This document shows positions 44,971-48,479 of a stretch of DNA of 64,000 nucleotides, piece after piece; position 1 is the first letter of the stretch, and each line of letters begins with the position of its first letter. Below the pieces are notes generated by a model. The model saw nothing but the letters and a program-made list of their open reading frames with translations. It searched no databases and had not been told where the DNA came from. The stretch is from positions 248,001 through 312,000 of the forward strand of contig MTMD02000002.1 of assembly GCA_002010065.2 (NCBI GenBank). The letters run 5' to 3'. This DNA is from Candidatus Pyrohabitans jungbluthii. Lineage in GTDB: Archaea > Hydrothermarchaeota > Hydrothermarchaeia > Hydrothermarchaeales > BMS3B. A program made the translations under genes and the position numbers.

Positions 44971-45903
44971 TCAAAAATTATACTTGTGCACACAATCCTC
45001 GGCTCTTATTCTGTCGTAATCGCGAGCCATCGCAGGCGTTAGCCAGGGCTTTACGCTTTTCATGGCGTAGCGTATGTCCTCCATGGTTACAATTACGCCG
45101 TCGCCTGAGGCGCGCTGAATCGCCATAAGCTTGGCTTTGCGCGCCAGGCTCTCCAAGTCCCAGCCCACGTAGTACTCCGTCTCTTCTGCAAGCTTCTCCA
45201 GGCTTACATCCTCAGCAAGGGCGACGCCAGAGAAGTAGTACTTCAGTATTGCTAGGCGGTCTTCATAGCTCGGGCGGGGCACGTATATCTTCCTGCCCAG
45301 CATTGAGGTGCGCGTAAACGCCTGGTCAAGCACGTCTATACGGTAGCAGCTCGCCGCGACAAAAATCTCGGGGTCGTACGCGACGCTCGCAATTTCCTCA
45401 TGCACAGCGCGGTGCACTTCCGGCGTTCCGAGCTTATCAGGCTTTCCGTAGGTTGAGCCGTCGCTCCACTCATAGTTAGCGTCCCTGCGGGGAGCTAACC
45501 AGTCCAGGTCCATAAGGTGCACCAGCACCGGCTTATGCTCCCGCGCCCACTCGAAGGCTCTGCGGATAACCTCCTCCTGTGCGGTGCATTCGCGACCTCG
45601 TATGATTAGGTAATTAACACCAGCCTCTTTAGCGCTGGCCTCTATAAGGTGCCCTCTGCCTGTGCCCAGAGGTCCCCACACTATAACGCCAGTGGGAGGC
45701 TGGATTCCTGCCTTTTTCAGAGCTTCGCCGTACTTAAGCGGCGTAACCACAATATCGCGGAACCTCTCCTTTACCTCATCGTAGCCCGCGATCTGCTCAA
45801 AGCTGAAGCGTGGCTCGAGAACATCGAGGTAAACCTCAAAATACTCCTCGATGCTTTTTTTAGAAGAGCCCTCAATATCCTCGTAGCTCATCCGCTTGGT
45901 CAT
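44971..45903 (-). CDS. AAA+ (CDC48-like) protein with degenerate Walker motifs, paralogue A
   Basis: FEQIAGYDEVKERFRDIVVTPLKYGEALKKAGIQPPTGVIVWGPLGTGRGH; VHLMDLDWLAPRR. Confidence 0.85.
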   Translation of the reverse strand: MTKRMSYEDIEGSSKKSIEEYFEVYLDVLEPRFSFEQIAGYDEVKERFRDIVVTPLKYGEALKKAGIQPPTGVIVWGPLGTGRGHLIEASAKEAGVNYLIIRGRECTAQEEVIRRAFEWAREHKPVLVHLMDLDWLAPRRDANYEWSDGSTYGKPDKLGTPEVHRAVHEEIASVAYDPEIFVAASCYRIDVLDQAFTRTSMLGRKIYVPRPSYEDRLAILKYYFSGVALAEDVSLEKLAEETEYYVGWDLESLARKAKLMAIQRASGDGVIVTMEDIRYAMKSVKPWLTPAMARDYDRIRAEDCVHKYNF

Positions 45904-45912
45904 GTTCTCCCC

Positions 45913-46782
45913 CTAATACATGTAGCGGTGCTTGCACTCCTCTTTATAAATATCGTCATAGCGGCGCAGCATCTCCGGCGTAAGCTCAGGGGTTATGCGC
46001 TCAAGTGCTTGCAAAAAATGCCTGAGCTTAACGCTGCTGAAGTTGTTTTTCTCCTCCTTTATTGCCATGAGCGTCGCCTGCCTTGGCAAGGAAAACAGCT
46101 GGGAAGGCGTGTGGTAGGCTGTTGCTTCAGCGAGCTTCTCCAGCGAGACGTCCTCGCCTAAGGGCACGTCGCTGAGCACCCTCTTGAGAATCTCAAGCCT
46201 GTCCTCAAACGCTGCGGGGGGCACGTATATCTTGCGGTCTATCCTGCCGTTGCGCAGCAGCGCCGGGTCGAGAATATCCACACGGGAGCTTGATACGAGT
46301 ATCTTAACGTCGTCGCGGTCGGCAAGCTCATCCACGCACTTAAAAAGCAAACGCGTCGCCTCGCGAGAGGCGAACACAGGTGGAGGAGGCAGAAGTGCTG
46401 ACTCAGCCTCGCGGCGCGGCGCTAAAATTTCCACCTCGCTTATGAACACCAAGCTTGGCGCCAGTTCGCGAGCAGCGTCGAAGAGGTGCTCAATGCTGTG
46501 CTCCTCCTCCACTAGGTTCTTCGCCTGCGCCGATAATAGCGTTACGCCCGCCTCCTTGGCGCTCGCCTCGGCAAATGTAGCAAAGCTGTTGGGTGGACCC
46601 CACATGAGTATGCCCCTCGGAGGGCGAAGACCGGCTTGTTTAAACGTCTCCGGGTGCTTCAGCGGGAGCACCACCATCTCCTCGAGGCGCTCCTTCACCT
46701 CCCAGAAGCCAGCTATTTCTTCAAAGCCAACCTCAGGCTCCTTAACCTTGAAGTACTGCCCTGGCTCAAGAACCTCGCACAT
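45913..46782 (-). CDS. AAA+ (CDC48-like) protein with degenerate Walker motifs, paralogue B
   Basis: FEEIAGFWEVKERLEEMVVLPLKHPETFKQAGLRPPRGILMWGPPNSFATFAEASAKEAGV; LVFISEVEILAPRR. Confidence 0.85.
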   Translation of the reverse strand: MCEVLEPGQYFKVKEPEVGFEEIAGFWEVKERLEEMVVLPLKHPETFKQAGLRPPRGILMWGPPNSFATFAEASAKEAGVTLLSAQAKNLVEEEHSIEHLFDAARELAPSLVFISEVEILAPRREAESALLPPPPVFASREATRLLFKCVDELADRDDVKILVSSSRVDILDPALLRNGRIDRKIYVPPAAFEDRLEILKRVLSDVPLGEDVSLEKLAEATAYHTPSQLFSLPRQATLMAIKEEKNNFSSVKLRHFLQALERITPELTPEMLRRYDDIYKEECKHRYMY

Positions 46783-46783
46783 G

Positions 46784-47854
46784 TTACCTTGCTCCCATCT
46801 TCTTTCCTGCGTTAACCATAACCTTAAGGTTTTCTATGGGCGTGCCCGCGTGCAAGCCACAGCTGGAGGAGACTATGTAACCCTCGCTGCCCGCGCTGGT
46901 TATGCATTTCTCAACATTACCCTCGATCTCGGCGCGGGTGCCTCGATAGATGGTGTCCACAGAGACGTTTCCGAATAGCGCTACGCGGTTACCAACACGG
47001 CGCTTGGCATCGCGCAGGTCAACGCTCTCGTCAACGCTCAAGCAAGAGGCCCCTGTTTTTGCAAGGTCTTCCAGTATTGGTGTGGTGTCACCGCAGATGT
47101 GGATTATAACTTCGCCTCCATACTTGCGCAGCGCAGAGCAAACCTTCTTCTCGTAGGGGTAGGCGAACTCGCGGTAGTGCACAGGCGATATTACCTGGGC
47201 CGCAGCGCTCGGGTCTTCCATCATTATCCCGTGCGTGCCCAAGTCGATCTGTCTCTTACCTATCTCAATCGCCACCTCAGTCATAAACTCAAGCAAGCGG
47301 TGAACCTCTCTAGGCTGGGTTATCATGTCCAGCATGAAGTTCTCCATGCCGCGCATCCACTCTGCGGCGTAGTGAAAGGGCGCTGGAACCTTGCTGCATA
47401 TGTAGACTTCGCCCTTTGTCTTTTCGAGCAAAGCCTTAAGCGGCTCCCACCTCTCGGGCTTATCCAGGTCTGGCATCTCCAGCTTGTCCAGCTCATCGTA
47501 GCTTTTAAGCGCCGGCTCCTTAACCGCGGGTCCACCCTCCAGGGGTATCTTCAGGGTAGTGCCCAGCTCAGTAGGGAGCACCACAAAGCCATTCTCCACC
47601 CGCATTGCTCGCCTTTCCTCTCTTGTAATCCCCTGGATGGGCTGGTGGTTGAATATCCAGTCGTAGCCATAGAGGCGCCATGCCTTGAGCTGGCCCTTAA
47701 CGTAAAGCTTGTTGTCTGTGACGTACTCCCAGGGTTTAACCCCCAGCACACGGGAAGCGTGGGGCACATTTACCATCGGCGCTACTGGCACGCGGTCAGG
47801 CGTGCCGCGCTGCATGGCTTCGCGGAACCTCTTTAACGAGTTCACGCTTCCCAC
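46784..47854 (-). CDS. Uroporphyrinogen decarboxylase-family (MtaA/MtbA/CmuA-like) methyltransferase
   Basis: RFREAMQRGTPDRVPVAPMVN...; IIHICGDTTPILEDLAKTGASCLSVDE. Confidence 0.88.
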   Translation of the reverse strand: MGSVNSLKRFREAMQRGTPDRVPVAPMVNVPHASRVLGVKPWEYVTDNKLYVKGQLKAWRLYGYDWIFNHQPIQGITREERRAMRVENGFVVLPTELGTTLKIPLEGGPAVKEPALKSYDELDKLEMPDLDKPERWEPLKALLEKTKGEVYICSKVPAPFHYAAEWMRGMENFMLDMITQPREVHRLLEFMTEVAIEIGKRQIDLGTHGIMMEDPSAAAQVISPVHYREFAYPYEKKVCSALRKYGGEVIIHICGDTTPILEDLAKTGASCLSVDESVDLRDAKRRVGNRVALFGNVSVDTIYRGTRAEIEGNVEKCITSAGSEGYIVSSSCGLHAGTPIENLKVMVNAGKKMGAR

Positions 47855-48479
47855 GCTCCTTCATAAGCTTCTCGCACAGCTTAACCGCTTTAGCGGCATC
47901 GCTTGCGTAGCCGTCGGCGCCAATCTCGCGGGCGTAACTTTCGCTCGCCGCCGCGCCGCCTATAATCACGAGCACATCATCGCGCAGTCCTGCCTCTTCC
48001 AGTGCTTCGATGACCTCCCGCATCTTGACTATCGTTGTTGACATCATCGCCGAAAGCCCGAGAATGTCTGGCTTGTACTTGCGTGTCTCCTCAACAAAAA
48101 CCTGCGTCGGCACATCTCTACCGAGATTCTTAACCTCGAAGCCAGCGCCTTCCAGGAACATGGACACGAGGTTCTTGCCTATATCGTGCACATCGCCGGC
48201 GACGGTGCCAATGAGCACCTTACCTTGAACCTCGACTTTATCGTAGTTGAGCAGGGGGCGAATAATGTCCAAACCTCGCTGCATCGCGTGCGCACTGAGC
48301 AGCGTCTCAGGTACATAGTAAACCCTGCGCTCAAAGAGGTCGCTGACCACCTCCATGCCTGAGATCATGTCTTTTAGGATGTCGTTCGCAGCTTCGCCGT
48401 GTTCAAGGGCAGCGTTGACAAGCTCCTCAATTTCGTATATTTTCCCTTCAATTACCGCCTTCTTTATCTCTTCGCCCAT
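47796..48479 (-). CDS. Corrinoid (B12-binding) methyltransferase protein
   Basis: GKVLIGTVAGDVHDIGKNLVSMFLEGAGFEVKNLGRDVP (DxHxxG). Confidence 0.94.
   Translation of the reverse strand: MGEEIKKAVIEGKIYEIEELVNAALEHGEAANDILKDMISGMEVVSDLFERRVYYVPETLLSAHAMQRGLDIIRPLLNYDKVEVQGKVLIGTVAGDVHDIGKNLVSMFLEGAGFEVKNLGRDVPTQVFVEETRKYKPDILGLSAMMSTTIVKMREVIEALEEAGLRDDVLVIIGGAAASESYAREIGADGYASDAAKAVKLCEKLMKERGKRELVKEVPRSHAARHA

What the first reader, a model, noticed from the sequence alone, without database searches (positions are those of the whole stretch)
44971..48479. Corrinoid/UroD methyltransferase cluster with two complementary AAA+ pseudo-ATPases
Four same-strand genes are packed tightly: corrinoid protein, UroD-family methyltransferase, AAA-B (1 nt gap) and AAA-A (9 nt gap). 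Both AAA proteins are clearly CDC48-like, but the catalytic motifs have decayed in different ways. AAA-A has GPLGTGRGH for Walker A (Lys to Arg) and LVHLMDLDW for Walker B (Asp kept, Glu lost). It also lacks the Asn of sensor 1 and the Arg-finger region. AAA-B has GPPNSFAT for Walker A (Lys lost) and LVFISEVE (Asp lost, Glu kept), but retains RNGRIDR. They share a conserved C-terminal tail (LTPAMARDYDRIRAEDCVHKYNF / LTPEMLRRYDDIYKEECKHRYMY). I know of no described corrinoid methyltransfer system with paired degenerate AAA proteins. They could be a remodelling, cofactor-loading or reactivation scaffold in place of the usual RamA/ASKHA-type activator. That function is inference.
Basis: partly seen in the sequence, partly recalled or inferred. 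Interest (0 to 1): 0.8.

Follow-up and report, generated by a model that had tools for sequence, protein, structure and literature searches.

The report
Methyltransferase cluster with three AAA pseudo-ATPases
A little-known archaeon pairs vitamin-B12-type methyl-transfer enzymes with three cousins of the Cdc48 protein motor that have lost the parts used to burn ATP and pull proteins, which suggests a motor family reused as a helper scaffold rather than an engine.

Summary
Among 23 genomes of the phylum these genes occur together in the same five and in none of the other 18. A, B, C and a solo bacterial subfamily D form one clade apart from Cdc48/PAN/FtsH domains. The defects are conserved, so this is not decay: sensor-1 Asn is Tyr in nearly all A, C and D; Walker-B Asp is lost in all A, C, D and 53/57 B; pore loop 1 is deleted throughout (305 rows). 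Only C keeps a full P-loop. All end in [DE]CxHxYx[FY]. dN/dS is 0.05-0.18. Best reading: a non-threading AAA scaffold dedicated to a two-UroD corrinoid methyl-transfer system, probably for cofactor or metal loading, repair or switching (inferred). Four of five genomes carry RamA-type activators elsewhere, as do relatives without the AAAs, which weakens 'RamA replacement'. D lies beside FmdE, hinting at metal handling. No description was found in the papers searched.

The parts
47796..48479 (-). Corrinoid (B12-binding) methyl-carrier protein CorP, keeps the GDVHDIGKN cobalt-ligand motif
   Evidence: Pfam B12-binding and B12-binding_2; 190 bits to the cobalamin-binding protein 1y80, aligned through the DxHxxG motif; orthologues (57-96%) only in the four other triad genomes
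46784..47854 (-). UroD1, MtaA/SCMT-like corrinoid methyltransferase with HxC...C zinc-ligand pattern; start more likely the GTG at 47845 by homology
   Evidence: URO-D 2.7e-70; NCBIfam methylcobalamin:CoM methyltransferase 179.8 bits, below the 244 cut-off; MtaA 4ay7 6.5e-20; orthologues (72-99%) only in the four other triad genomes
45913..46782 (-). AAA-B pseudo-ATPase: Walker-A Lys lost, Walker-B Asp to Ser, both Arg fingers kept, pore loop 1 deleted, tail ECKHRYMY
44971..45903 (-). AAA-A pseudo-ATPase: Walker A GPLGTGRG, Walker B MD, sensor 1 Tyr, second Arg finger Met, pore loop 1 deleted, tail DCVHKYNF
   Evidence: AlphaFold2 model pLDDT 93, p97 D2/PAN-like fold

Best explanation
Shown by sequence: six genes are co-inherited in this archaeal phylum, namely a corrinoid protein, two MtaA-like zinc-type UroD methyltransferases and three single-domain Cdc48-related proteins A, B and C. 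Inferred: A, B and C assemble into a mixed AAA ring or partial ring that cannot thread substrates (no pore loop 1) and hydrolyses ATP poorly or not at all. Only C keeps a full P-loop; the Arg fingers best suited to complete its site are those of B. The ring serves as a client-specific scaffold for the corrinoid/UroD enzymes. Its most likely job is loading, repair or nucleotide-gated assembly of their metal cofactors (corrinoid, or zinc in the UroDs), with the invariant C-terminal Cys-x-His-x-Tyr-x-Phe/Tyr tail as docking or metal-binding element. Ordinary reductive activation could be left to the RamA encoded elsewhere in most of these genomes.
For: Co-occurrence: A, B, C, CorP and UroD1 orthologues lie in G000, G001, G012, G014 and G017 and in no other of 23 genomes; UroD2-type genes lie beside AAA-C (G000, G001) or beside the CorP operon (G012, G014). 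These genomes span three families with non-carrying relatives in two of them. A, B, C and D form one clade against 17 Cdc48/PAN/FtsH/other AAA domains, support 100/100. Defects are fixed per subfamily. Purifying selection: dN/dS 0.05-0.18. Pore loop 1 (SKWVGES region) is absent in all 305 aligned rows and in HMMER alignments to solved VCP-like proteins. Tail Cys and His are invariant among 65 and 43 diverse rows. The fold is otherwise intact. FmdE, a family whose solved members include zinc-finger forms (PMC2954224), adjoins D in 41 of 59 bacterial loci and AAA-C in G012 and G017.
Against: No direct evidence for complex formation, nucleotide or metal binding. AAA-C is not in the same operon as A and B in any of the five genomes. 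Cofactor loading rests on neighbours, invariant Cys/His and analogy. FmdE is unlinked to the AAAs in G000 and occurs without them in G004. Subfamily D has no corrinoid or UroD neighbours matching the window's, so the family as a whole is not tied to methyl transfer.
Confidence: 0.45

Rival explanations
1. The AAA triad replaces RamA/RACo as ATP-dependent reductive activator of this corrinoid protein.
For: Known mlp clusters with two or more MtaA-like enzymes plus a corrinoid protein carry a Ram/RACE gene (PMC10418091); no RACo gene lies near the AAA operon in any of the loci read. G017 shows no RACo hit.
Against: RACo proteins exist elsewhere in G000, G001, G012 and G014, and in relatives without the AAAs; G017 is only 62% complete. 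The AAAs have no redox domain, and most catalytic motifs are damaged.
Confidence: 0.12
2. A nucleotide-sensing regulatory ring: ATP/ADP bound by AAA-C (and perhaps A) gates contact between CorP and the UroDs without any cofactor chemistry.
For: C keeps the P-loop Lys and Thr in 47 of 47 covered rows and the catalytic-position Glu; A keeps the P-loop Lys in 50 of 54; B keeps both Arg fingers in 57 of 57.
Against: Walker-B Asp to Asn and sensor-1 Asn to Tyr are fixed in C; in D the P-loop Lys is lost in every covered row, so ATP binding of the usual kind is dispensable in part of the family.
Confidence: 0.25
3. General protein quality control: a Cdc48/PAN-like unfoldase that happens to sit in the operon.
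For: Relation to the Cdc48/PAN group, p97 D2-like fold.
Against: Pore loop 1 deleted in all members, catalytic motifs lost, strict co-occurrence with one metabolic module, and the genome keeps separate Cdc48-type AAAs with the normal motifs.
Confidence: 0.04
4. Recent pseudogene decay in one lineage.
For: Window AAA-A has a further lesion (Lys to Arg) not seen in most A proteins.
Against: Intact ORFs, dN/dS 0.05-0.18 and the same lesions fixed in dozens of homologues.
Confidence: 0.01

Closest known systems
CDC48/p97 D2 and PAN AAA modules (TIGR01243, PF00004, PF17862)
   Same: Single AAA domain with lid, about 23-30% identity to p97 D2/PAN structures, same fold
   Different: No N domain or second ring, no pore loop 1, Walker A/B, sensor 1 and Arg fingers altered in fixed ways, unique C-terminal CxHxYx[FY]; far below the CDC48 cut-off (153-174 against 802.65 bits)
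mlp gene clusters (type 1 MGCs) and the MtaA/MtbA soluble CoM methyltransferases (PMC10418091)
   Same: Several MtaA-like UroD proteins plus a corrinoid protein in one module
   Different: No Ram/RACE in the cluster; three AAA proteins present; UroD1 below the NCBIfam MtaA/MtbA cut-offs; not compared with the Mlp clades here
MoxR-class AAA+ cofactor-insertion chaperones (NorQ/NorD, CoxD; PMC9976466, PMC3471820)
   Same: Precedent for AAA proteins dedicated to metal-cofactor insertion into one enzyme
   Different: MoxR proteins are a different AAA+ branch, hydrolyse ATP and in the NorQ/NorD case pair with a VWA protein; nothing of this kind was found here
RamA/RACo reductive activators (PF14574)
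   Same: Would fill the accessory slot in corrinoid methyltransferase clusters
   Different: ASKHA-fold plus Fe-S redox proteins; unrelated to AAA, and present elsewhere in the same genome

Membership tests
CDC48/p97 AAA ATPase | AAA core and lid with p97-like fold | tested here: met
   AAA and AAA_lid_3 Pfam hits; AlphaFold2 model matches p97 D2 and PAN
CDC48/p97 AAA ATPase | Intact Walker A/B, sensor 1 and Arg fingers | tested here: not met
   table over 305 rows; only C keeps Walker A, and C lacks the Walker-B Asp and sensor-1 Asn
CDC48/p97 AAA ATPase | Pore loop 1 for threading | tested here: not met
   five-residue deletion at SKWVGES in all 305 aligned rows, same gap
CDC48/p97 AAA ATPase | Score above the CDC48 subfamily cut-off (N domain plus two AAA domains) | tested here: not met
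   153.5 and 173.8 bits against 802.65
Corrinoid methyl-transfer system (SCMT/mlp type) | Corrinoid protein with DxHxxG cobalt-ligand motif | tested here: met
   GDVHDIGKN in CorP, aligned to 1y80
Corrinoid methyl-transfer system (SCMT/mlp type) | MtaA-type UroD with HxC...C zinc ligands | tested here: met
   UroD2 aligns HIC and the late Cys with MtaA 4ay7; UroD1 carries the same HIC and SSSC pattern by sequence
Corrinoid methyl-transfer system (SCMT/mlp type) | Assignment as MtaA or MtbA (NCBIfam cut-offs) | tested here: not met
   UroD1 138 bits against 400 (MtaA) and 126.5 against 600 (MtbA)
Corrinoid methyl-transfer system (SCMT/mlp type) | Ram/RACE gene in the same cluster | tested here: not met
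   PF14574 only in separate clusters
Corrinoid methyl-transfer system (SCMT/mlp type) | Methyl donor and acceptor identified biochemically | not testable with these tools
   no assay
Type 1 MGC | Presence of orthologues of both Mlp2 and Mlp3 | not tested
   Mlp sequences were not fetched

The most novel reading that the evidence does not exclude
A hetero-oligomeric AAA assembly built from three pseudo-ATPases without pore loops, in which nucleotide hydrolysis is lost or confined to one interface, works as a dedicated cofactor-loading or repair scaffold for corrinoid methyltransferases, using a C-terminal Cys-His tail; the same family serves FmdE-linked metal handling in bacteria.
Probability: 0.3. 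Interest if true: 0.88.

Novelty: new variant of a known kind. Interest (0 to 1): 0.72.

Why it matters
AAA proteins are usually read as ATP-driven machines. Here a whole clade, in archaea and in several bacterial phyla, has fixed loss of the hydrolysis and threading parts while keeping the fold and an invariant Cys/His tail. In archaea it is tied to a B12-type methyl-transfer module that lacks its usual activator gene in the cluster. It offers a testable case of a motor family turned into a scaffold, and a possible new accessory factor for corrinoid methyl transfer in poorly known anaerobic archaea.

Tried and rejected
RamA replacement: weakened by RACo hits in four of five triad genomes. Threading unfoldase: made unlikely by the pore-loop deletion. 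Pseudogenes: rejected by dN/dS and conservation. Read-through B-A fusion: the B stop (TAG) and A are in one frame in the window, but the B tail is the conserved C-terminus and in G012 the genes overlap in different frames, so no fusion; a fused alignment meant for AlphaFold2 put every row on the B half and was dropped. Triad in Desulfobacterota-group genomes: 0 of 398 at 1e-65; the tool warns that an empty answer alone shows nothing. Triad elsewhere in archaea: 5 of 397 sampled, all in the window's phylum. Bacterial D genomes searched with AAA-C show one D protein plus ordinary AAA proteins. Anti-phage defence: only weak IetA/TRIP13 hits, as expected for shared AAA ancestry. Paper searches for corrinoid plus AAA, Hydrothermarchaeota, FmdE plus AAA and pseudo-ATPase terms found no description. 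A first tree with a mis-stranded PAN row was discarded and rebuilt.
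Full report
Setting. The window is G000:C2:248001-312000 of a 2.0 Mb archaeal genome. Named homologues of 50-70% identity come mostly from Candidatus Hydrothermarchaeales, so the host is probably of that group; this is inference from hit names. 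The phylum as held has 23 genomes.

Observation. Four minus-strand genes lie in one block: CorP 47796-48479, UroD1 46784-47854, AAA-B 45913-46782 and AAA-A 44971-45903. CorP and UroD1 overlap, UroD1 and B are 1 nt apart, B and A 9 nt apart with a GGGGAG ribosome-binding sequence before AAA-A. Domain assignments are firm.

A third paralogue. Searching the genome with AAA-A finds AAA-C at G000:C10 (40% to A, 47% to B). It is divergent from a second MtaA-like gene, UroD2 (L022 8734-9612 and 9702-10709). AAA-C has an intact P-loop GPPGGGKT, Walker B FINEVD (Asp to Asn), sensor 1 TYR, and the second Arg finger kept.

Co-occurrence. A, B and C occur in G000, G001, G012, G014 and G017 and not in the other 18 genomes. 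UroD1 orthologues (72% or more) and CorP orthologues (57% or more) follow exactly the same pattern; in genomes without the AAAs the best hits are 38% for UroD1 and 48% for CorP. A UroD2-type gene (38-44% to UroD1) is present in all five, next to AAA-C or next to the CorP operon in four of them. The five genomes fall in three families, and families f1 and f6 also contain genomes without the set, so the pattern needs several gains or losses. Taken as independent draws the match would have a chance of 1 in 33,649, but G000/G001 are close relatives, so this number overstates the case. CorP-UroD1-B-A order holds in G000, G001, G012 and G017; in G014 the contig with CorP-UroD1-B ends soon after B and A ends another contig. 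Outside the phylum the triad was not seen in about 370 other sampled archaea nor in 398 Desulfobacterota-group genomes. It is common in unnamed metagenome proteins, where 18 of 30 A proteins on contigs of 4.4 kb or more have a B-family protein on a contig of identical length (a proxy).

Family structure. A tree of 86 domains puts A, B, C and a bacterial subfamily D together against 17 Cdc48, PAN, FtsH and related domains (100/100); A joins D (100/99) and B joins C (100/97). A few proteins with a B-like tail and an intact GGGK[TS] loop branch at the base of B plus C, so B probably lost its P-loop after duplication. Two of these (P0173, P0183) share contig lengths with A proteins, which suggests a two-subunit version (lead, not tested).

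What is lost and what is kept (305 rows, near-duplicates included). A: P-loop Lys in 50 of 54 but Thr lost; Walker-B Asp is Met and Glu is Asp in 54 of 54; sensor-1 Asn is Tyr in 54 of 54; Arg fingers R and M. B: Lys lost in 57 of 57; Asp lost in 53 of 57; both Arg fingers kept in 57 of 57. C: Lys and Thr kept in all 47 rows that cover them; Asp to Asn and sensor 1 to Tyr in 48 of 48; second Arg finger kept. D: Lys is lost in all 133 rows that cover it (Ile in 124), Asp is lost in 134 of 134 (Ser in 128), sensor 1 is Tyr in 132 of 134. In all of them the alignment has a gap exactly at pore loop 1, also seen as a five-residue gap against solved VCP-like proteins. In contrast the C-terminal Cys and His are invariant in 65 diverse rows and again in 43. 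dN/dS between G000 and G001 is 0.05-0.18 for the five genes tested. AlphaFold2 gives confident models for A (pLDDT 93) and C (92.5), and the A model matches p97 D2 and PAN.

The methyl-transfer side. CorP has GDVHDIGKN and matches cobalamin-binding carriers. UroD1 and UroD2 match MtaA (4ay7) with the HxC...C pattern, but UroD1 falls below NCBIfam cut-offs for MtaA and MtbA, so the substrate is unknown. [quoted passage not shown] PMC10418091). Here the Ram/RACE gene is missing from the cluster. But G000 has a full canonical cluster with UroD, corrinoid protein, RamA-like and MtrH-like genes at C14 (L197), and RACo hits occur in four of five triad genomes and in several without the triad. So RamA may serve in trans, and the AAA set is more likely an addition than a substitute.

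The FmdE link. D proteins (Desulfuromonadales, Nitrospirae, Actinobacteria and others) are followed on the same strand by an FmdE gene in 41 of 59 loci with room, often overlapping, and by an ArsP-type permease in 43 of 59. Genes reading as MoaA/MoaC/MOSC lie near D in loci such as L096 and L097 (by sequence reading only). AAA-C lies near an FmdE plus two small proteins in G012 and G017, and near the two small proteins in G014; in G000 these genes are elsewhere (C15), and G004 has them without AAAs. FmdE structures show a core domain with, in some members, a zinc finger (PMC2954224). This is the main reason for favouring metal or cofactor handling as the family's general role; it remains inference.

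Mechanism, with status. Shown: co-inherited module, conserved lesions, intact predicted fold, purifying selection. Supported but indirect: no threading, little or no hydrolysis. Inferred: assembly of A, B and C together, docking on CorP/UroD, cofactor loading or repair, tail as metal or docking site. AAA+ cofactor-insertion factors such as NorQ and CoxD (PMC9976466, PMC3471820) show that the principle exists, by another AAA branch.

Verdict. The finding is real and extends beyond what was reported. The AAA part is a widespread pseudo-ATPase clade that, as far as the papers searched show, has not been described; its function is open.

Noticed in passing
L031-L107 (bacterial loci), e.g. L045 9992-12254: Solo bacterial pseudo-AAA subfamily D with loss of the P-loop Lys throughout, followed by FmdE and an ArsP_1 permease and then exported NosD/FG-GAP/carboxypeptidase-regulatory proteins; divergent thiamine genes upstream in many Desulfuromonadales.
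   Followed up: partly
L079, L096, L097: Genes reading as MoaA, MoaC and MOSC (and, in L079, MoeA and tungstate-type transporter parts) lie near or next to the D gene, hinting at a molybdenum/tungsten context.
   Followed up: no
L023 8776-9473, L026, L030, L194 7921-8621: A conserved pair of unknown small proteins (about 142 aa Cys-rich and about 90 aa) travels with FmdE; no Pfam match. In G000 it follows sulfite-reductase-like genes.
   Followed up: partly
L197 10589-15271 (G000:C14): A canonical corrinoid cluster (UroD, corrinoid protein, RamA-like, MtrH-like) elsewhere in the window's genome.
   Followed up: partly
window 29843-31782: AT-rich island (GC about 0.40 against 0.50-0.57 elsewhere) with an HD-domain-like phosphohydrolase ORF and a small ORF, possibly acquired.
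   Followed up: no
window 43497-44738: Secreted transglutaminase-like (DUF553, sub-threshold) protein downstream of AAA-A on the same strand; in G001 the gene after AAA-A is different, so it is not part of the module.
   Followed up: no
contigs behind P0049/P0183 and P0052/P0173: Possible two-subunit version of the system: an A protein and a B/C-ancestor-like protein with intact P-loop on contigs of identical length.
   Followed up: no
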